Shown here: positions 5,506-18,019 of the stretch, piece by piece
How positions within the stretch are numbered: the first letter of the stretch is position 1
How the letters are laid out: every line of letters begins with the position of its first letter
DNA from: a virus
DNA: 59,893 nt
Virus record (IMG/VR): IMGVR_UViG_3300028595_000001
Location: 1-59,893 of that record
Reading direction: 5' to 3' (one strand)
The notes under the pieces: model-generated
The model's input: only the letters and a program-made list of their open reading frames with translations
Told to the model about the DNA's origin: nothing
Databases searched by the model: none
Position numbers and translations under genes: made by a program

Positions 5506-6843
5506 TGAAAATACCTTTCATTAGCGGCGAAGGACCGGACGGATATTTGCCGATAAACTTGTATTTTTCACCCCGCAAAATATATGGGCGTGACGCACTT
5601 GTTGGCAGACCTGGATTGCTTGAGTTCTGTGACCTTGGATCATCTGCGAAAGTACGGGCAATGGCAGAAAGTCGCGGCATGGGTTTTGTTGTTAGCGGCA
5701 GCGGTTTGTATAAAGTAACTCCGTTCGGTGGTAGCACACTTATTGGAACGCTTGACTATAGCTCTGGGAACGCTTGGATTGAAAGCAACGGAGAACAGGT
5801 GTGCGTGGTAGAAAACAACCGTTGTTATATTTATGAGGATGAAACCCTTAGTGACGTTGAAAACGACGACCTGCCTTTTTCACCTGCATCGCTTGCATAT
5901 GAGGGGGGGTATTTTCTTTCACACGATGCAAACTCAGAAAACTTTTATGAATCTGATTTGTATGATGGAAGCTCTTGGAACGGTGTAGAGTATGCCATCA
6001 CTTCAGTAAAAAAAGATTATTTGTCATCATTGTATGCGGTTAATGGACAAGTTTATGCGATGGGGCATGAGTCTGGTGAAGTTTACTACAACTCTGGGGG
6101 AAGTGATTTTGCGTTTTCAAAAATACAGGGTGGTAACATACCGTGCGGAATTCTTGCAGAAAAAAGTGGCGCGGTTTTTCTTAACAGCTTGGTGGCCTTG
6201 GACAATACTGGCGTTGTTGTTCAGCTTTCTGCCAACCCGATTAAACTAAGTAACGAGCATGTAGATCGTGAGATCGCGTCAATGACAACAGCTAAAGACG
6301 CGAATAGCTTTATGTTTTCAATGAGTGGTCACACGTTTTATGTGATTACTTTCCCGACCGGAAACAAGACTTTTGTTTACGACATGGTGTTCAAGCATTG
6401 GTACGAATGGAGAACGGGAACCGGAAGGTGGCGTCCAAACTGCTACATGAAACTCGACAAAAAGCATCTAGCCGGAGACTACGCAAACGGAAAAATATAT
6501 GAGTTAAGCGAGACTACATATTCAGATGACGGTGATGAAATAATCAGACAGCGAGCCATGCCGGTGCAGAAGGGGTCAGAGCTTGTTACTTTTTCTTCTT
6601 TTGAGTTGGAACAAGAAGGCGGGGTTGGAATTTCTACCGGACAGGGCTCTGATCCGCAAGCCGTACTGGAAGTTTCTGTTGATAAGGGCAAAACGTGGGG
6701 AAACGAAAAATGGCGCGATATTGGAAAAGCCGGTAAATATAAGCAGCGTTTGATTTGGAGAAGGCTTGGAAGGCACAGAGATTTCACGCCAAGAGTGACG
6801 GTTTCTGACCCTGTTAGGACTGTTTGGACGGGAGCGTACTTGA

Positions 6844-9767: not shown

Positions 9768-11195
9768 ATGGTAAATTACAACGCTTTCAACGTAGACCCG
9801 AACCAATACCAGCAGCAGGCAATGGGAAACTTTTCCAATGCTATGCAGATTCGCAACCAAAATCAACAGGCGGCGGACAGGAACGCTTTGTATAAGCAGC
9901 AACAGGCTGACCTACAGGAGCAACGGAAGGCGCAGAACGCTTTTGAGGCGCAACGGGTTGGAGAGTTGCAAAAAAGAACTGTTTTACAACAGCAACAGCT
10001 TGAACAAGAAAAGAAACAAGATCAGTACCGTAGGTGGGGCAAAGGGATAGAAATAGCTTTGCAACAAAAAACGACAGATGGGGCCAATGCTGCATTGAGA
10101 AACATCGCTCCTGTTCTTGGCTTAGAAGACGTAGAAAGTTTTTCATTTACAAATGTAAACCCAACACAATCAACGGGCGTTATTAAAACATCACAGGGCG
10201 ATGTTGAGATAACAGCGCCGACCGAAAATTTTTTTCCTGTAGTCGAAAAGATGACCACCGATCCGACGTTGGCAAACAATCCTGAATTGATGGGTAAGTT
10301 TTTGGCGGACAATGGCGCTTCGTTGAAACCATACACAGCAAAAGAAAAAGACGATGGATTTACGTTGGGTGAGGGACAGATAAGATATGATAAAAACGGA
10401 AACATTATAGCAAAAGGAACTCCCAAAAAAGACAAAGAAGAATCAACAAAGCCTATTTACGATAGGAATGTAGAGTTGGCCCTTGCTGCAAACAATATCC
10501 AAAAAACCAAAACTGGTGGTTACGAACAATTGGGATTTAACATAGACGGAGAAGAAACGTGGGTTCCAGCGTCAAAAGAAAACGCGCAATGGGCTGCAAA
10601 AACAGAAAGAGAACAAAGATATTATACATCCCAGGTTTTAAAATTTAAGAAAGAACTTGAAAAAAAATACAATGATACAATTAGTTATGAAGACGCTGGC
10701 TATGAATTTGAACAAAGAAGGGCAGAAGAAAGAGCAAAAAGAGCGGCTCGCGATGCTGCCTTTAAAAAAAGTTCGGCGGACGAACAAAGGTTTAAGCGTA
10801 TAGACAGGGGCGGTCCTCAAAAAAACAAACAAAAATTTGACCCAGAAGGAAACGGTTACGACATGGAGTCTGCGAAAGCAGCCGGTCTTAAGCCAGATTC
10901 TACGGGCCACTGGCCGTCAAGAGATCCAAAAACAGGGCTTCTTTTAAAGGGTCGTGGCCATAAAACGTGGAAAAAAACAATAGCTGCTGAAAAAGCTGCT
11001 GGATACGAAGTATATAAAGGGGATGATGGTAGATACTATTCTCGTAAAAAGAAAAAAGATATGTGGGAAAACTACCAAGAAGAGAGCAAAAATGCCTTTA
11101 AAGGTGCGGGTTTGCCTGAATCTTTAATGCAAGACCTCCCCAAAAAGAATGTAATGTCAGGAATGCCAAAACCGTACAACGCGAGATTTCGATGA
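9768..11195 (+). CDS. Coiled-coil internal virion / ejection protein
   Basis: 475 residues. Residues 10-90 are extremely Gln/Asn-rich and predicted coiled coil (QQQAMGNFSNAMQIRNQNQQ, then more Gln repeats). The middle has short beta segments and the last third is Lys/Arg-rich. No enzymatic motif was recognised. It is translationally coupled (ATGA) to the giant gene that follows and lies in the P22 gp20/gp16 position, so an ejected internal protein is likely. Confidence 0.5.
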   Translation: MVNYNAFNVDPNQYQQQAMGNFSNAMQIRNQNQQAADRNALYKQQQADLQEQRKAQNAFEAQRVGELQKRTVLQQQQLEQEKKQDQYRRWGKGIEIALQQKTTDGANAALRNIAPVLGLEDVESFSFTNVNPTQSTGVIKTSQGDVEITAPTENFFPVVEKMTTDPTLANNPELMGKFLADNGASLKPYTAKEKDDGFTLGEGQIRYDKNGNIIAKGTPKKDKEESTKPIYDRNVELALAANNIQKTKTGGYEQLGFNIDGEETWVPASKENAQWAAKTEREQRYYTSQVLKFKKELEKKYNDTISYEDAGYEFEQRRAEERAKRAARDAAFKKSSADEQRFKRIDRGGPQKNKQKFDPEGNGYDMESAKAAGLKPDSTGHWPSRDPKTGLLLKGRGHKTWKKTIAAEKAAGYEVYKGDDGRYYSRKKKKDMWENYQEESKNAFKGAGLPESLMQDLPKKNVMSGMPKPYNARFR

Positions 11196-14100
11196 CTAAT
11201 TGGTCAAAAACATTTGATTATTTAGACAGGAAGGAAATTTTTCCGCTTCCTGAACAACCGTTAGTAAACCAGCCGAAGCCAGTTGAACCAGACGACAAGT
11301 CTGAGTTTGGCAAAGGTTGGAAAGCCGGATTGTATCAAACCGCTGCCGTTGCTCCTGCTGTTGTTTCAATGGCGGGAAAAGCTGTTGGTGCTGATTCCGT
11401 TGCTGAGTGGGGCGCAGAAAAAGCTGGCGGTTTGATGGAAAAAGCGTCTGAGTATGAGGGTGAAACTTCTTTTGAAGAACTAATTGACAGCCCAACATTA
11501 GAGGGTGCAACCAATTGGTTTTTGCACACGGCAGGAACGGTTGCTCCATCTATGATTATTGGCATGACGGGCGCTGGCATTGGCGCAAAAGCGTTGGGTG
11601 GTTTGGCCTTAAAGAAAATGTCAAAATCTTTAATTGCCAACAAAGCCAAGGGACTTGTGGCTGAGGGGGTTGCGAAAGACGTTGCTGTCAAGCTGGCAGC
11701 AAAACAGCTTGCTTCAAAAGCCGTTAAATACGGCGCTGCGGCTGGAATTGTTGCAACAACGGCACCACAAGAAGCCGCCCACAATTTTATGGCTGACGTT
11801 GAGCAGCACGGTATTGAGAACGCTTCTCCAGGCAAGGCAGCATTAACAGGAACAGCCGCTGGCCTTGTGGAGCTTGGTTTTGGTGGTGGTCATTTACGCC
11901 TTATTAATAAGGTGTTGGGGGTTAAGGCCGGAAAGGTTGCTACCAAAGAACTGAGTAAGCTTGCCAAAATAGGCAAAGTTGGTGATGAATACCGTCTTGT
12001 TCGGATGCTAAAAGAAGCCGTTATTCAGGGTGGCGGCGAAGGATTACAGGAACTAACCCAAGAAGAACTATCTATCCTGAACGAAATCTGGACCGGCGAA
12101 GACCAATCCTTTTTTGAAAAAAAGAACCTGCTGCGCGCTGGCGAATCGTTTGCTGCTGGTGCTGTCATGGGTGTTCCTACTGGTGGTGTGACGGGTGTGT
12201 TCAGCAAAGCTTCGGTTGATAATAGCGGTGATACCACAGGAGAGGGCGATACAGGCACAAAAGTTAAGGGGCGCACCATTGACCTTGGAGACATCCCCGG
12301 CCCTGACGAATACGCCCGTATGGAAGCGTCCATGGGTGAAGACAGGGGGACAAGGACACTTGATGTTTATAAACAATCTCGCGGGAAAACCGTACCGAAC
12401 AGAAACCCAATTCAAGCAGAAATAGAACGACGCAAAGAAGAACAATATTGGAAGGACGAAGAAACAAAAATTAAATCCCAGCGCAGAGATGCTGGAATGG
12501 ATAGAAAAGACCCCAAACAGCAAGCATTGGAGGAAGCATGGCAAAAGGACAATGTAACGGAACCGGTCAAGGCAACGGAAATGGCTGCAAGAACCCAAGC
12601 CCCTGCTGCGGAAGCAACCGCAAAGGTAACGGAAATTGCGGAAAGCCCCAAGGAAAGGGCCGCAATAAGTGACAAAACGCCCCGTAAAGCAAAAGAAGGT
12701 CAAGGCGTTAAGAAACCACTGGTACAAAAAGTCGCACCGGAAAAGGCAGCGGAGGTAAAAGTTGGAGGTGTCGCCGTTACGTATAACCCCACAATTTCAA
12801 GGGTTGACAAAAACCGAGGGAATGGCGCGGCGGGTGTTGTTTTAATGGAAGAATCAGGACTCTCTACAGAACTTCCTGTGAGCAAGGGTGACGATATATT
12901 ATATAGGGGCATGTCTAAGGCTGAATATGAAAACGTAATTGAAACAGGGAAAATAGCGTCACACGGAAAAGGTGACTTTGTTCACGTGGGACACGAAGGT
13001 CAGACATCTTTCGTGGATGACCCCGTTGTCGCTGGCATGTTCGCTCATGGAGGTAGCCCCCGTGCTGGTGGAAAACCGTCTGTCAATGAACCAGCATATA
13101 TAATCGGCGTGAAGACAAATGCGCCTAAAACTAAAAGGCCATACCAGTATGGAGTCAAGGAAGCCACGGAATACGGTGTTGCTGGAGAAATTAGTGCTTC
13201 GGAGATTGTGAGCGTTACTGAATCAAACATGTATGCGATTGCTGATAACATTACTATCGACATGCCGATGGCAGAGCGCATCGGCATCGGGTACAGGGCA
13301 TTAAAACACAAGATCGCATCGAAAGAAGGTCAAGGCGTTAAGAAACCGTTGGTACAAAGTGTCTCATATAAAGCGTCAAAGAAAGTAGATTCAGCCGCTG
13401 ATGTCTTTAACACGGGTTCCTCGTCTTTTGGAGGCGGAATAAATAGCGTTACTTCTAGTGTCAAGAAGCTTGGCAATATTAGAAATAGACTCGCCTCTCT
13501 TAATCATAGTTTTAGCGACCTTGATGTCAAAACTAAGAGGAATGTGCAGTCTATTATGGTCGATGCGCTTCATCAGCCTGAGGTTAGAAATGCGGTTATC
13601 AAGTCTATCCCCGTTAATGTGGTGGACGACTTCATCTCTTTTGCCGGAATTTTAAATGGACCTGCCGATATGTTCTTCCATAACGGCGATGTGCTCCTTG
13701 ACCCTAACATTATTAATACAAAAAACTCTATACCCACTGGAGTTTATAGTGCCAGTTCTTTGCTGGATGGCATAGCACGCCTGACTACATCACAAAAAGA
13801 GACGGAAGTAAAGACCAAAACACAAAAAGCCACACCCGAAAAGGCAGCGAAGATAGGTGTTGACAAAGCGTGGGTTAAATTAGCAGAAAAACACGGAATA
13901 AAAAAACCATCTGATGCAGAAATAAAAAGACGCAACGACGAACTGATTGAAAAAAAGCGTGAGTTTGAGAGGAAACGGACAAAAGCTGCACCGAAGGCGA
14001 CAAAGACCAAACTCGCTACCGACCGCCGTCAACACCCATTAGACCCCGGCGGCGCACAGTACACCGATAAGAAACGCCGCAACCCACTGTTTCCAAGAAG

Positions 14101-17100
14101 CAAGAAGCCTGACCGCCGTCAAAACATTACTATGGCTAAACAGGTAGCGGCAGAGTTCAAGCGCATGGGTTTCGGTTCACGGGTGAACGGTGACAGCGTG
14201 CGTGTGTCAACCCCCACCGGAAACATTGCCATAAACATCGCTGACAGCGTGGTGGGAGACGATAGCGCAACGATAAGGATGGCATACGGTAAGGAAGCCA
14301 AGCCGGGGGAGAAAGTCGTAGGATCGTACTTTGACGGTGAAATTAAGCTGAAGCGCAACAAGGCTGACAGGTTTATTCTTAGCCACGAACTTTTTCACCA
14401 CATGAAAGCTGCTGGCCTGTTCACGGCGGCTGAAGAAAAAATCCTGTCACGCAAGGGGAGTGAGGAAGCACAGGCAAGATGGGTTGAGCGTCAGTTGAGA
14501 AACCGTGGCAAACAGAGCAGTGTGGTAAGAAAACTAATTAAGAAAATAGCCGACTTTTTGGACGCCTTGGCTAACGTGTTTGTGCGAACTGAGCGAGGGG
14601 TTTTGCGGGATGTGGAGTCGGGCAGAATCTTAAAAAGGAGCGACCCCAAGAATATCAGCGGCCCTCTTACGAAGAACGACATCAGGAAGCCTTCTGCCAA
14701 AGGGGTTGTGCCACCCCCTGCGAATAAAAGCCTCTCTAATGGAATTGGGGTGGCGGTTAAAAATCTTTCCAAGTCTTTTGTACCCGATACCGGCGTCCTT
14801 AAGCCTTTTAGCAGTCTTGATGTCGTAGGCCAAAGGGATGTGCTTGCGATGATGCGCACTATCCTTAAGGACAGAAAGGTTCTCGATTCTGTTGTCCGCC
14901 TTGTCCCCATTGATGTGGTGAACATGCTCAGTGGGAAGAAGATTTCTCCCAAGGTTTTGCTCGACAACCCATCTATGCTCGTAGACTTGCTTCCCACCGA
15001 CCCTAACGACCTTATACCCAGCGGCGTTCGTGCCGTTGATATACTTGCCCCTGTTAGCGCAATCAACGCTGCAAAAGTAGTTTTTGGAACTTCTGTGGTA
15101 CATGTATCGTCTAAAGAAATTCTTTCCGCAATTGGAACAGACAAGATCGGGCATGACAGCCTCCTTTCAATTGTCGATAAAATACCACACCCAAATGAAT
15201 ATGTCAACCAACTTTTTAACGAGGATGCCGCTGAGATTAACGAGCATATTCAGTACGCCACGGCGGTAGAGGGGGAACAATACACATTACCCTTGACCAA
15301 CATGGATAAAGCCAAGTCTGTTTTTAATCGCAAGTTCAACGATGCAATGTACTGGATTGTTGATAAAAATTATTCCATCGACGTAACACAGAAAAAACTT
15401 GGCGAACTGACAGATAAAATCAACGTGTTCTTGAAGGAAACGCAACGACCGAAGATTACCGCTGCGAAAGTAGAAAAGTTCTGGGAAGACGAGGTTCAGC
15501 CGCTTATTAAAAAGATGGCAAGGTACGGCGTAAACGTGGAAGACCTTGAACTGTATTCCCACGCCAAGCACGTTATTGGTGACAACCTCAACCAACTTCT
15601 TAGGGAGCGCAACGCTAAAATTCAGGTTGAAGAAATCATTGGCGTTCTCGATAAAAAAGAATCTAAAGCCGTTGAAGCATCCGTTAAGGGCGTGAAGGCA
15701 CCCGCCGATTGGTTGAAGCATCTTGAAGAAATATTTGACGCACACAAAAACAACGAAGACGTTCAGATGCTTAAAGCGAAATGGGATAAGTTCGCTGAAA
15801 AGCCATCTGGAATGACAGACAAAGATGCTAAAGCTGTTCTAAAACAATATGAGGGCGACGAAAAAATAGAAGAACTCCGCAAGATGATGCTGAACATCAA
15901 CAAGGGAAGACTTGACCTTCTTTTCGATGCGGGGCAAATCCCCAAAGAAGAATATGACAGAATTGTAAAAAAATACAAGTATTACGTTCCCCTGTATCGT
16001 GAAGGCTACGACGACTCTATGTTCGGAACGACAAGGGGGCTGAAACCTTCTGGGCGACAGGTAAAAGTTCGTGGCGGTTCTACAAGGAACGTGGTCAATA
16101 TCTTTGCGAACACGGTTGCCAATTATGAGAAGGCAATCAACATATCTGAAAAGGCTGTGTCTCAAAGGGCGTTGTACGGGCTTGCCAAGGCCAACATTGG
16201 TTCTGAAACGCTCACCATAAGACCCGTTAAAAAGTCTCCCCGCACGGACAAGAATGGAAATATTAGAATGTATCCAAACTTGTTTGAAGTCGAGCCAAAC
16301 GAGATGCGGATTATGGTAGACGGCAAGCAGTATCTTATAGAGGTAAACAAAGACGACAAAGACGCAATGTTGATGATGCGGACGCTCAAGGCAGATGACG
16401 GCATGAACGGTCCAATTGTCAACTTTCTTGCCAGAATAAACAGGTTCCTTGCGAGAATAAATACTACATGGTCGCCTGAGTTTATTATATCCAACTTCTT
16501 GCGAGACTTTGGAACGGCGAACATCAATATAAGGGACACCGGGGTAAAAGGGGAAAATATGTTCTCCGGTGCCAGAAAAGCCATTGTTGCGATACTTGCG
16601 GTAGAACGTGGTAAACGAAAAGGCACAGACCTTGAAAAGATGTATGATCGTTTTAAAGCGGCTGGTGGGAAGATCGGTTGGGCAGATGTTCACGGTTCGG
16701 TTGAAAATCTATCCAAAAAAATAACCAGAGAAATTGAGATGCAGTCGGGTAAGCGTCCGACAAGGGCTGCGATTAAAGGGTGGCTGGAATTAATCGACAA
16801 CGCGAATACGGCAATTGAAAACGGTATTAGGCTTCACACGTTCAAGCTTGCTACAGAACAGGGGAAGACTGACGAACGTGCAGCGCAGATAGCGTCAGAC
16901 CTAACGGTAGACTTTACCAAGAAGGGTGCGGCTGGACCCGTTATAAACTCTTTATATTTGTTCGCCAATGCTGGTATACAGGGTTCCTATCGTATCTTAA
17001 GAGCAAGCATCAAGTCTCGTTCGGTTCAGAAAGTGCTGGCGGGTATTGTCGGAACAAGTTTTGTCGTTGGAATTTTAAACTCAATGGCGGGTGAAGACGA

Positions 17101-18019
17101 AGACGGGGAAGACTATTTCAACAAAATTGACGACTTCGTGCGCGAACGGAATATGATTTTTATGATCCCAGGCACGAAAGGAAAATACGCCAAAATACCA
17201 GCACCTTGGGGATACAATTTGTTTTGGAATATTGGATCTGAACTTTCTCGCGCAGTTACAAAAGAAAATTTCAGTGCCATGTCAAGTGCCGGAAGGCTGA
17301 TATCTATTGCGGCTGGTGCGTTTAACCCCGTTCAGTCGGGGACGTTATTGCAAACACTCTCACCGACCGTGGCAGATCCGTTCGTCATGGTTTCCGAAAA
17401 CAAGAATTGGTTTGGTGGCGATTTAATGCCAGCAGTTAATAAGTTTGAGAGGGTTCCTACACCGGATTCGCAAAGATATTGGAAGTCGGCAAGTTCTGGT
17501 TCAAAATGGGTTGCTGGAGCATTAAACAAACTAACCCGTGGCGACAAAATCAAGTCTGGCGCAATAGACGTATCACCAGAAACGCTTGATCTTATCTTGG
17601 ACACCGCTGGTGGGTCAGCACTTCGGTTTTTCAAAGATTCAATCGGTGTTCCTCTCGCCAAAATTCGTGGTGAAGAAATAGAAGCGCATAAAATACCATT
17701 TTACAGAAGGGTTGCTGGGGATCAACCAGCGTGGGCGAACTCAAGAATATATTATGAAAACATTGAGAATGTTTTAATCGCGAAGGAAAGGCTGAAAGCC
17801 TACAAGGGAACTGTCCAATACAAGAATGTGTTGATTGCCACGAAAGACCTGAGAAAGATGATGCCCCTTGCTGAACAAAGCGAAAAGAGACTCAGGAAGT
17901 TAAGAAAATCATTGAAGGCGGCTGAAGTATCTGGCGATAAAGACCGCGTTGAAACAATCAAAAAAAGAATGAACGCTGTATATAACCGATTTAACAAGTT
18001 TTACAACAAGGAGAAATGA
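11192..18019 (+). CDS. Giant polyvalent ejection protein with zincin motif (2275 residues)
   Basis: N-terminal 330 residues are Ala/Gly-rich amphipathic helices as in gp16-type ejected proteins. Residues about 565-680 look like an ADP-ribosyltransferase-type fold (LYRGMS, TSFVDDPVVAGMFA, GEISASEIVS). Residues 1065-1069 are HELFH, a zinc metallopeptidase motif followed by a helix. Near residue 1757 TTWSPEFIISNFLRDFGT matches the large polyvalent protein associated domain type seen in many phages. Residues 734-866 and 1147-1321 are encoded by the strand opposite two HNH endonuclease copies and resemble each other. The protein is probably carried in the head and injected, delivering several activities. 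One uninterrupted frame and an ATGA overlap with the previous gene support the start. Confidence 0.75.
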   Translation: MTNWSKTFDYLDRKEIFPLPEQPLVNQPKPVEPDDKSEFGKGWKAGLYQTAAVAPAVVSMAGKAVGADSVAEWGAEKAGGLMEKASEYEGETSFEELIDSPTLEGATNWFLHTAGTVAPSMIIGMTGAGIGAKALGGLALKKMSKSLIANKAKGLVAEGVAKDVAVKLAAKQLASKAVKYGAAAGIVATTAPQEAAHNFMADVEQHGIENASPGKAALTGTAAGLVELGFGGGHLRLINKVLGVKAGKVATKELSKLAKIGKVGDEYRLVRMLKEAVIQGGGEGLQELTQEELSILNEIWTGEDQSFFEKKNLLRAGESFAAGAVMGVPTGGVTGVFSKASVDNSGDTTGEGDTGTKVKGRTIDLGDIPGPDEYARMEASMGEDRGTRTLDVYKQSRGKTVPNRNPIQAEIERRKEEQYWKDEETKIKSQRRDAGMDRKDPKQQALEEAWQKDNVTEPVKATEMAARTQAPAAEATAKVTEIAESPKERAAISDKTPRKAKEGQGVKKPLVQKVAPEKAAEVKVGGVAVTYNPTISRVDKNRGNGAAGVVLMEESGLSTELPVSKGDDILYRGMSKAEYENVIETGKIASHGKGDFVHVGHEGQTSFVDDPVVAGMFAHGGSPRAGGKPSVNEPAYIIGVKTNAPKTKRPYQYGVKEATEYGVAGEISASEIVSVTESNMYAIADNITIDMPMAERIGIGYRALKHKIASKEGQGVKKPLVQSVSYKASKKVDSAADVFNTGSSSFGGGINSVTSSVKKLGNIRNRLASLNHSFSDLDVKTKRNVQSIMVDALHQPEVRNAVIKSIPVNVVDDFISFAGILNGPADMFFHNGDVLLDPNIINTKNSIPTGVYSASSLLDGIARLTTSQKETEVKTKTQKATPEKAAKIGVDKAWVKLAEKHGIKKPSDAEIKRRNDELIEKKREFERKRTKAAPKATKTKLATDRRQHPLDPGGAQYTDKKRRNPLFPRSKKPDRRQNITMAKQVAAEFKRMGFGSRVNGDSVRVSTPTGNIAINIADSVVGDDSATIRMAYGKEAKPGEKVVGSYFDGEIKLKRNKADRFILSHELFHHMKAAGLFTAAEEKILSRKGSEEAQARWVERQLRNRGKQSSVVRKLIKKIADFLDALANVFVRTERGVLRDVESGRILKRSDPKNISGPLTKNDIRKPSAKGVVPPPANKSLSNGIGVAVKNLSKSFVPDTGVLKPFSSLDVVGQRDVLAMMRTILKDRKVLDSVVRLVPIDVVNMLSGKKISPKVLLDNPSMLVDLLPTDPNDLIPSGVRAVDILAPVSAINAAKVVFGTSVVHVSSKEILSAIGTDKIGHDSLLSIVDKIPHPNEYVNQLFNEDAAEINEHIQYATAVEGEQYTLPLTNMDKAKSVFNRKFNDAMYWIVDKNYSIDVTQKKLGELTDKINVFLKETQRPKITAAKVEKFWEDEVQPLIKKMARYGVNVEDLELYSHAKHVIGDNLNQLLRERNAKIQVEEIIGVLDKKESKAVEASVKGVKAPADWLKHLEEIFDAHKNNEDVQMLKAKWDKFAEKPSGMTDKDAKAVLKQYEGDEKIEELRKMMLNINKGRLDLLFDAGQIPKEEYDRIVKKYKYYVPLYREGYDDSMFGTTRGLKPSGRQVKVRGGSTRNVVNIFANTVANYEKAINISEKAVSQRALYGLAKANIGSETLTIRPVKKSPRTDKNGNIRMYPNLFEVEPNEMRIMVDGKQYLIEVNKDDKDAMLMMRTLKADDGMNGPIVNFLARINRFLARINTTWSPEFIISNFLRDFGTANINIRDTGVKGENMFSGARKAIVAILAVERGKRKGTDLEKMYDRFKAAGGKIGWADVHGSVENLSKKITREIEMQSGKRPTRAAIKGWLELIDNANTAIENGIRLHTFKLATEQGKTDERAAQIASDLTVDFTKKGAAGPVINSLYLFANAGIQGSYRILRASIKSRSVQKVLAGIVGTSFVVGILNSMAGEDEDGEDYFNKIDDFVRERNMIFMIPGTKGKYAKIPAPWGYNLFWNIGSELSRAVTKENFSAMSSAGRLISIAAGAFNPVQSGTLLQTLSPTVADPFVMVSENKNWFGGDLMPAVNKFERVPTPDSQRYWKSASSGSKWVAGALNKLTRGDKIKSGAIDVSPETLDLILDTAGGSALRFFKDSIGVPLAKIRGEEIEAHKIPFYRRVAGDQPAWANSRIYYENIENVLIAKERLKAYKGTVQYKNVLIATKDLRKMMPLAEQSEKRLRKLRKSLKAAEVSGDKDRVETIKKRMNAVYNRFNKFYNKEK
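12692..13358 (+). repeat. 37-bp direct repeat bracketing an ART-like domain insertion
   Basis: Copies at 12692-12728 and 13322-13358 (two mismatches) encode Lys-Glu-Gly-Gln-Gly-Val-Lys-Lys-Pro-Leu-Val-Gln in the same frame, 630 bases apart. The following protein run Pro-Glu-Lys-Ala-Ala occurs after copy 1 and again at about 13837, beyond the decayed HNH copy. The layout suggests the ancestral protein had one such linker that was split by an ART-like domain and by the antisense endonuclease. Confidence 0.75.
13391..13789 (-). pseudogene. Decayed antisense HNH endonuclease copy
   Basis: Reading the complement in exact register with the ejection-protein codons gives an HNH protein broken by a TAA at 13652-13654 and by a TGA at 13790-13792 just before its Cys finger remnant. 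Preserved segments include SSGYRV, then EHIAVMEEHIGRSI, then after the stop VVHHINGDRLDNRISNLRLM and HIPLSFDIKVAKTM. Each aligns with the intact copy at 14630-15154. The downstream half alone could start at Met 13573. No promoter or Shine-Dalgarno is evident. The opposite strand remains fully open as part of the giant protein (residues 734-866). Confidence 0.8.
14630..15154 (-). CDS. HNH endonuclease nested antisense in the ejection gene
   Basis: 174 residues. A zinc finger (C6, C9, C28, C32) is followed by a GYKVV strand, EHRWVVEQ, then the catalytic HVHHINGDKADNRIENL (residues 77-93) and HHRKHIPL. The C-terminus has a helix-turn-helix-like segment with RHPNSIREAF, probably for DNA recognition. 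This is the usual free-standing phage homing endonuclease layout. AAAGGAGG (complement of 15160-15167) lies 5 bases before the ATG, and a strong promoter lies just upstream. The gene is wholly inside the giant ejection gene on the other strand, codon on codon, so its antisense has no stops. It avoids TTA, CTA and TCA codons. Confidence 0.9.
   Translation of the reverse strand: MPDLVCSNCGKNFFRRYMYHRSSKNYFCSVDCANRGKYINGTNAAGYKVVRVGGKQVYEHRWVVEQNLGRNLLPTEHVHHINGDKADNRIENLSVLKDSAHHRKHIPLAYDIKTAKRLKDAGIGYKRLGKIFNRHPNSIREAFIRRGWHNPFGRRLPDVVLRKRAADILGVAPF
15179..15207 (-). promoter_or_regulatory. Sigma70-type promoter for the nested HNH gene
   Basis: On the minus strand TTGACA (15207-15202), 17-base spacer, TATTTT (15184-15179). 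Transcription would start near 15172, giving a leader of under 20 bases that holds the AAAGGAGG ribosome site. The promoter bases are also codons of the giant ejection protein. Confidence 0.7.

What the first reader, a model, noticed from the sequence alone, without database searches (positions are those of the whole stretch)
14630..15207. Complete HNH endonuclease gene nested antisense, codon on codon, inside a giant ejection-protein gene
Seen: the minus strand at 14630-15154 encodes a full HNH enzyme (four-Cys finger, HVHHINGD core), with AAAGGAGG 5 bases before its ATG and TTGACA-17-TATTTT just upstream. The plus strand is an unbroken part of a 2275-residue frame, and the codon boundaries of the two genes coincide. 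To keep both frames open the HNH gene avoids TTA, CTA and TCA. Inference: a homing gene landed in the only register that spares the host gene, or evolved to do so. The ejection protein then carries a 175-residue segment that is the reverse reading of an endonuclease. Homing genes usually sit between genes or inside self-splicing elements, so this is an unusual way to live in an essential gene.
Basis: partly seen in the sequence, partly recalled or inferred. Interest (0 to 1): 0.95.

Follow-up and report, generated by a model that had tools for sequence, protein, structure and literature searches.

The report
Endonuclease gene hidden antisense in phage gene
A DNA-cutting gene that looks like a mobile (homing) element sits backwards inside a giant phage gene in the one reading register that lets both genes stay readable, and at least 23 other viral or bacterial contigs carry relatives that do the same, which points to a way for selfish genes to live inside other genes that I could not find described.

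Summary
A complete HNH gene (14630-15154, minus strand; two CxxC-type pairs, HNH core, C-terminal HTH, AAAGGAGG five bases before the ATG) lies codon-on-codon antisense inside an unbroken 2275-codon polyvalent-protein gene (LPD38). A second, decayed HNH copy with two stops lies in the same gene, antisense and in the same register (13415-13792). Its insertion interrupts a linker that also occurs uninterrupted 600 bases upstream.

It is not a one-off. Scans of IMG/VR and GTDB found 23 more HNH genes nested antisense in long ORFs (mostly 1045-4125 codons), all codon-on-codon, in at least 13 host sites. Twenty tested loci hold 0 TTA/CTA/TCA codons against 96 expected; 55 free-standing relatives show no avoidance (129 against 120). 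Substitution patterns in an orthologous group show the HNH frame under purifying selection in place, the reverse of the host-gene flanks. Related host genes lack the insert.

Best explanation: a family of HNH homing endonuclease genes adapted to sit silently in protein-coding DNA, needing neither intron nor intein. Homing itself is inferred, not shown. "Ejection protein" is plausible but unproven; essentiality was not tested.

The parts
14630..15154 (-). Intact HNH endonuclease gene, 174 aa: N-terminal Cys pairs (C6/C9, C28/C32), HNH core at residues 58-103, HTH-like C-terminal region at about 112-145
15160..15167 (-). Ribosome-binding site AAAGGAGG, 5 nt before the ATG
   Evidence: Shine-Dalgarno match of 4 or more bases at 65% of nested HNH genes against 6.6% at random antisense positions of the host genes
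15179..15207 (-). Promoter-like TTGACA-17-TATTTT with TG before the second hexamer; not above chance by count
   Evidence: the same short region is shared with L022/L023/L265 as the host residues KIPxP
14660..15211 (.). Approximate extent of the inserted cassette: host residues 1157-1340, absent from or replaced in all host relatives
   Evidence: L007 homology stops at host residue 1156 and resumes at 1341
11192..18019 (+). Host gene: 2275-residue large polyvalent protein
   Evidence: (LPD38 1.5e-36)
17114..17701 (+). LPD38 domain of the host protein (residues 1975-2170)
14384..14401 (+). Zincin-like metallopeptidase motif HELFHH (residue 1065 on), N-terminal neighbour of the insert
   Evidence: sequence; conserved in L007 and L014
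13415..13792 (-). Decayed second HNH copy (39% identical to the intact one, one TGA and one TAA), antisense and codon-on-codon in the same host gene, host frame still open
13354..13821 (.). 468-bp insertion (156 codons) holding the HNH relic, between the two halves of a linker
12692..12756 (+). Uninterrupted copy of the linker (KEGQGVKKPLVQKVAPEKAAEV): an empty-site control inside the same gene
   Evidence: 30/32 and 28/33 identical to the two halves 13322-13353 and 13822-13854

Best explanation
The HNH gene is a member of a family of homing-type endonuclease genes (zinc finger, HNH core, HTH) that live inside protein-coding DNA of large phage genes, on the opposite strand and codon-on-codon. 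Shown: the gene is intact, both frames are open, the arrangement recurs in at least 24 loci always in this register, the HNH frame evolves under purifying selection while nested, and host alleles without the insert exist at the same sites. Inferred: the HNH protein is made from its own start signals, cuts host-gene alleles that lack it, and is copied in by recombinational repair. The insert does no harm because codon-on-codon antisense needs only that TTA, CTA and TCA be replaced by other Leu/Ser codons, so any endonuclease sequence can be written with an open complement, and because it sits in linkers, loops or variable cargo slots of modular polyvalent proteins. The host protein then carries a passenger segment of roughly 170-300 residues. 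In this window the cassette descends from one that sits in a loop of ART-like domains in five relatives; here the ART-like domain around it is gone and the HNH gene remains.
For: Recurrence: 16 other nested loci (L051 excluded as doubtful), 3 in bacterial MAG contigs and 4 more, all codon-on-codon. Nested genes cluster in the HNH tree: 6 changes against 19.7 in shuffles. Stop avoidance: 0 observed, 96.5 expected in 20 nested loci; 55 free-standing relatives 129 observed, 120.5 expected; clade members whose host frame is lost or absent do use these codons, 3/21, 3/22 and 4/18. Selection in place: in orthologs L029/L030/L031/L033, HNH-synonymous/host-changing substitutions 0.41 per site, HNH-changing/host-synonymous 0.245; the host flank reverses this, 0.19 and 0.49. 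In every pair the HNH frame is more conserved than the host frame. Start signals enriched. Presence/absence at one site: filled in L029, L030, L031, L033, empty in about 60 related host genes. Host relatives of the window lack the insert and any HNH on their contigs. Internal empty/filled linker pair. No intron-type RNA and no intein domain.
Against: No cleavage, transcript or peptide data. No cultured phage with the arrangement was found. Seven of 20 nested genes have no recognisable Shine-Dalgarno match, and the promoter match is not above chance. Zero stop-creating codons is partly by construction, since nested loci were recognised by an open frame. The enzyme might serve another purpose than homing. 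Nested and free-standing genes are not cleanly separate clades.
Confidence: 0.74

Rival explanations
1. The host-frame segment is the functional part (a helical domain of the polyvalent protein), and the HNH reading is a leftover or coincidence on the other strand.
For: The host segment is predicted as a helical bundle with pLDDT 83-86 over about residues 70-160 of the segment and pTM 0.61 from four sequences. In the relic copy the host frame stays open while the HNH frame has stops. Host-changing/HNH-synonymous changes are about half as frequent as doubly synonymous ones, so the host frame is not wholly free.
Against: The HNH frame is the better conserved in every pair, with its wobble position freest. 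HNH catalytic and Cys residues are intact and match free-standing endonucleases. No fold match for the host segment, only one of five models is confident, and host relatives lack it altogether.
Confidence: 0.06
2. The HNH gene is nested and expressed but is not a homing element; it serves the phage in another way, for example packaging, counter-defence or exclusion of rival phages.
For: HNH nucleases have many roles (general knowledge); polyvalent proteins belong to conflict systems (PMC5512222); homing was not tested.
Against: Sporadic presence in unrelated host genes and hosts, presence/absence at one site, a decayed second copy in the same gene, and zinc finger + HNH + HTH modules typical of homing enzymes all fit a selfish gene better. 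Intron-less homing genes can also exclude rivals, so the two are not exclusive.
Confidence: 0.14
3. The HNH genes are inert debris: free-standing genes swept into polyvalent genes by module shuffling and kept only as spacer.
For: Linker repeats flank modules, and one copy in the window is already decayed.
Against: All 24 nested genes used here have an intact HNH frame, the ratio dNN/dSN for the HNH frame is 0.31-0.57, and start signals are enriched.
Confidence: 0.04
4. Chance: long antisense ORFs are common in this register and the HNH match is incidental.
For: Codon-on-codon antisense is the most open register (2.8% of 185-codon stretches).
Against: HNH homology at 1.4e-10 to 3e-17 and 24 loci; in A+T-rich loci such as L028, L043 and L041 about 10-15 stops would be expected and none is seen.
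Confidence: 0.01

Closest known systems
Free-standing HNH/GIY-YIG homing endonucleases of phages (T4 mob and seg genes; review PMC2988022)
   Same: Small endonuclease gene with its own signals, sporadic among relatives, HNH core with extra DNA-binding modules.
   Different: T4 free-standing genes lie between conserved genes and overlap neighbours by at most about 24 bp as described there; here the gene lies wholly inside a coding sequence, antisense, with the host frame kept open.
Intron- and intein-encoded homing endonucleases
   Same: Endonuclease gene housed inside a host gene without destroying it.
   Different: Those are removed by RNA or protein splicing. Here no intron family and no Hint domain is found, and the complement is predicted to stay in the protein.
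WHO elements of yeasts (PMC7282813)
   Same: Homing element that keeps the target gene working without splicing.
   Different: WHO elements replace the 3' end of FBA1; they are not read antisense through the gene.
Rickettsia palindromic elements (described in the MITE review PMC10969869)
   Same: Mobile DNA inserted in-frame in many coding genes, adding a peptide segment.
   Different: About 150 bp, read in the sense direction of the gene, no nuclease gene on the other strand.
ardD nested antisense in tniA of Tn5053 (PMC3533173)
   Same: A functional gene lying antisense within another gene of a mobile element.
   Different: A single reported case with an anti-restriction gene; not a recurrent, mobile, register-locked arrangement with a decayed copy and empty sites.

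Membership tests
HNH endonuclease (Pfam HNH_3, PF13392) | Profile match above the curated cut-off | tested here: met
   41 bits against cut-off 24.8
HNH endonuclease (Pfam HNH_3, PF13392) | Catalytic His/Asn/His residues conserved | tested here: met
   H79, H80, N82, D87, N88, R89, N92 and H101 invariant across the nested group
Homing endonuclease gene | Present/absent polymorphism at one site among related genes | tested here: met
   L029-type host gene, filled in 4 lineages and empty in about 60; the window's host relatives are empty
Homing endonuclease gene | Site-specific cleavage of the empty allele | not testable with these tools
   needs biochemistry
Homing endonuclease gene | Copying into empty alleles in mixed infections | not testable with these tools
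   needs a cross
Intron-encoded homing endonuclease | Lies in a group I or II intron | tested here: not met
   no Rfam match at 12500-16500, host frame open throughout
Intein-encoded homing endonuclease | Lies in a Hint/splicing domain | tested here: not met
   no Hint match in the host protein; the insert of about 184 codons is filled by the HNH gene and its upstream region
Large polyvalent protein (Iyer et al. 2017) | Giant multidomain phage protein with LPD, ART or zincin domains | tested here: met
   LPD38 1.5e-36, HELFHH motif; other nested hosts carry ART-PolyVal, InPase, RadC, LPD1/3/5/22/23/38
Large polyvalent protein (Iyer et al. 2017) | Injected with phage DNA | not testable with these tools
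   a prediction of PMC5512222 for the class
Overprinted (de novo) overlapping gene | The new frame arose within an older host gene | tested here: not met
   the HNH frame is the old, homologous one; the host segment is the newcomer

The most novel reading that the evidence does not exclude
A distinct class of mobile genes, exonic antisense homing endonucleases: selfish endonuclease genes that have evolved to write their complement as a tolerated, foldable segment of the host protein. They can invade the interior of coding genes without splicing, and after they decay they leave new protein segments behind, as in the relic at 13354-13821.
Probability: 0.55. Interest if true: 0.95.

Novelty: new variant of a known kind. 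Interest (0 to 1): 0.88.

Why it matters
Homing genes are thought to need a neutral address: an intergenic gap, an intron or an intein. These genes make a coding sequence neutral by being read codon-on-codon on the other strand, a property of the genetic code that lets any protein be written with an open complement. That would be a further way for selfish DNA to persist. It would also be a set of long antisense gene pairs with known homology, natural empty sites and measurable selection, and a source of new protein segments. Standard annotation reports only one of the two genes, so such pairs may be widely overlooked.

Tried and rejected
An intron or intein around the insert: rejected. A single chance antisense ORF: rejected by recurrence. 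L051 looked nested but its HNH ORF runs out of the opposite ORF and carries such codons: excluded. L220 looked like a further case but matched only the antisense of an InPase domain in the over-long L025 ORF: excluded, and L025 was trimmed to 5986-6498. L114 has a 552-codon antisense ORF in G+C-rich DNA with no sign of being a gene: not counted. L024, L267, L268 and L269 belong to the same HNH group but have no open host frame: not counted, used as controls. DNA-level search of the insert against phages found nothing. Cultured phage records with HNH hits that I opened show ordinary sense genes or unannotated intergenic matches. The HNH model is too weak for a fold search (pLDDT 61); the host-segment model found no fold match in PDB or viral libraries. 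Literature searches for a precedent found none in the held library, which lacks most subscription journals. I read some searches only by title and abstract.

Full report
What is there. The minus strand 15154-14630 encodes a complete 174-residue HNH endonuclease (Pfam HNH_3 1.4e-10; PHROG 3e-17) with Cys pairs at 6/9 and 28/32, the core HVHHINGDKADNRIENL and a C-terminal helix-turn-helix-like region (helices at 112-120, 125-131 and 136-145 with block pLDDT of about 69-86; the model as a whole is weak, mean 61). AAAGGAGG stands 5 bases before the ATG. The plus strand is an unbroken 2275-codon gene, a large polyvalent protein with LPD38 (1.5e-36) and a zincin-like HELFHH motif. The two frames share codon boundaries. 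The AT skew turns negative over the insert, and the codon-based strand signal falls to about zero there and over a second stretch, 13397-13756.

The second stretch is a decayed HNH copy (13415-13792, 39% identity, one TGA and one TAA), also antisense and also codon-on-codon. It sits in a 468-bp insertion, a multiple of three, between the halves 13322-13353 and 13822-13854 of a linker that occurs uninterrupted at 12692-12756 (30/32 and 28/33 identities). The window therefore carries its own empty-site control. The host frame has stayed open although the HNH frame there is broken.

Host relatives. In L007, 70% identical over the C-terminal 938 residues and 67% identical before the insert, homology stops at host residue 1156 and resumes at 1341; between them L007 has a DUF3990/ART-like module instead. 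L014 has other sequence in the slot. L008/L012, L013 and L015 align only downstream of it. None of these contigs has an HNH match.

Recurrence. A scan of IMG/VR with an HNH alignment gave 80 loci. With L001, 16 of them, besides the doubtful L051, have the HNH gene lying antisense in a long ORF (1045 to 4099 codons, or 667 codons up to a contig end in L032), every one codon-on-codon. GTDB added L102 (Phycisphaerales MAG), L103 (Desulfuromonadaceae MAG) and L106 (Verrucomicrobiota MAG). A tighter scan added L265 (66% identical), L266, L270 and L271. Together with the window that is 24 nested genes. The hosts examined are mostly polyvalent proteins: LPD38, LPD23, LPD22, LPD1/3/5, ART-PolyVal, InPase, RadC; L028 and L040 gave no Pfam match, and L050, L032, L106, L265, L266, L270 and L271 host proteins were not scanned. 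Comparing flanks on both sides, the first 20 fall into about 13 unrelated host sites.

Register. In the other two antisense registers some amino-acid pairs force a stop in the complement (Phe followed by Ile/Met/Thr/Asn/Lys; Phe/Tyr/His/Asn/Asp/Cys followed by Tyr). Nineteen of the 20 nested proteins tested contain at least one such pair; L029 has none. Codon-on-codon forbids only TTA, CTA and TCA, which always have synonyms. This follows from the code and explains why the register is constant.

Codon evidence. Twenty nested genes contain 0 of these codons against 96.5 expected from the codon usage of neighbouring genes. Fifty-five free-standing relatives contain 129 against 120.5. Part of the first figure is by construction, since nested loci were recognised by an open frame; the A+T-rich loci, where 10-15 stops would be expected, carry the weight. 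Three members of the wider group without an open host frame do use these codons (3/21, 3/22, 4/18).

Selection. In the orthologous group L029/L030/L031/L033, which diverged with the HNH gene already in the same host site, changes that are silent in HNH but alter the host occur at 0.41 per site, changes that alter HNH but are silent in the host at 0.245, both-altering 0.167, both-silent 0.84 (few sites). The host gene just beside the insert shows the opposite, 0.19 and 0.49. Apparent dNN/dSN for the HNH frame is 0.31-0.55, dNN/dNS for the host frame 0.59-0.82. In every pair the HNH frame is more identical than the host frame, and HNH third positions are in nearly all pairs the least conserved. 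The HNH gene is therefore maintained while nested; the host frame is under weaker constraint that goes somewhat beyond the absence of stops.

Sites. In L022, L023, L102, L265 and L266 the insert lies in the same loop of an ART-like domain, between GTGEGxQAxGxGxYxA...Y and GNLYxVE (L102 lacks the exact right border in the stretch aligned). The flanks were compared separately and not joined. The window's cassette shares the short upstream stretch KIPHP(S/N)E with L265, so it most likely comes from such a site, with the ART-like domain since lost; this is inference. In the L029 group the insert lies between GQQFDQ or NILNQSA and PRATFNPSTLTVTLLKGADLSSFLHESGH. About 60 related host genes run straight through with FxQ..ARGSFNPATLSITLLKNADLSTFLHES, and left-flank relatives without the insert exist (L233 for L029, L224 for L031). 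A short FxQ motif stands on both sides of the insert, which may be a target duplication or a shared linker.

Expression. Thirteen of 20 nested genes have a Shine-Dalgarno match of at least 4 bases near a start codon, against 6.6% at random antisense positions. The window's promoter-like site is not above chance. No transcript data exist here.

What it works like and what it is. It works like a homing endonuclease gene: modular zinc finger-HNH-HTH, sporadic, present/absent at one site, with a decayed sister copy. Membership by mechanism (cleavage, transfer) could not be tested. It is not in an intron or an intein. I found no description of such an arrangement in the library searched. The nearest are T4 free-standing enzymes (PMC2988022), WHO elements (PMC7282813), Rickettsia palindromic elements (PMC10969869) and the single nested gene ardD (PMC3533173).

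Limits. All examples are metagenomic or MAG contigs; no cultured phage carries the arrangement in the records checked. The predicted helical fold of the host segment (pTM 0.61, one of five models, four sequences) has no match in PDB or viral libraries and is only a hint that the complement may fold.

Noticed in passing
L147:6820-9135 (Polynucleobacter sp. Tro8-14-1) and L151:3-2237 (Burkholderiaceae MAG): A gene that looks like the phage terminase large subunit (judged by eye) carries an intein-like insert (weak Hint_2 match, below the curated cut-off) whose HNH-HTH homing endonuclease is encoded on the opposite strand in a different, not codon-on-codon register. Between the two, host third positions are 98% identical in the overlap against 68% elsewhere (Fisher 4e-24).
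   Followed up: partly
window 12692-13862: Direct repeats of a linker flank a probable ART-like module (about residues 520-710, judged by eye) and the HNH relic, suggesting that modules move in and out of polyvalent genes at repeated linkers.
   Followed up: partly
L024:175-690, L268:1517-2611, L269:3651-4745, L267:5059-5553: Close relatives of the nested HNH genes whose complement has stops and no continuous host frame; L024 and L267 contain TTA/CTA/TCA codons. They may have escaped from, or outlived, a host gene.
   Followed up: partly
host segment, window 14609-15226 (+): The reverse reading of the HNH gene is predicted as a helical bundle more confidently than the HNH enzyme itself (pTM 0.61 against 0.36), with no known fold match.
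   Followed up: partly
mycobacteriophages such as Bipolar, ShiLan, Pollywog: HNH domains of this type are found under genes annotated as DNA methylase/methyltransferase, apparently in sense; not examined.
   Followed up: no
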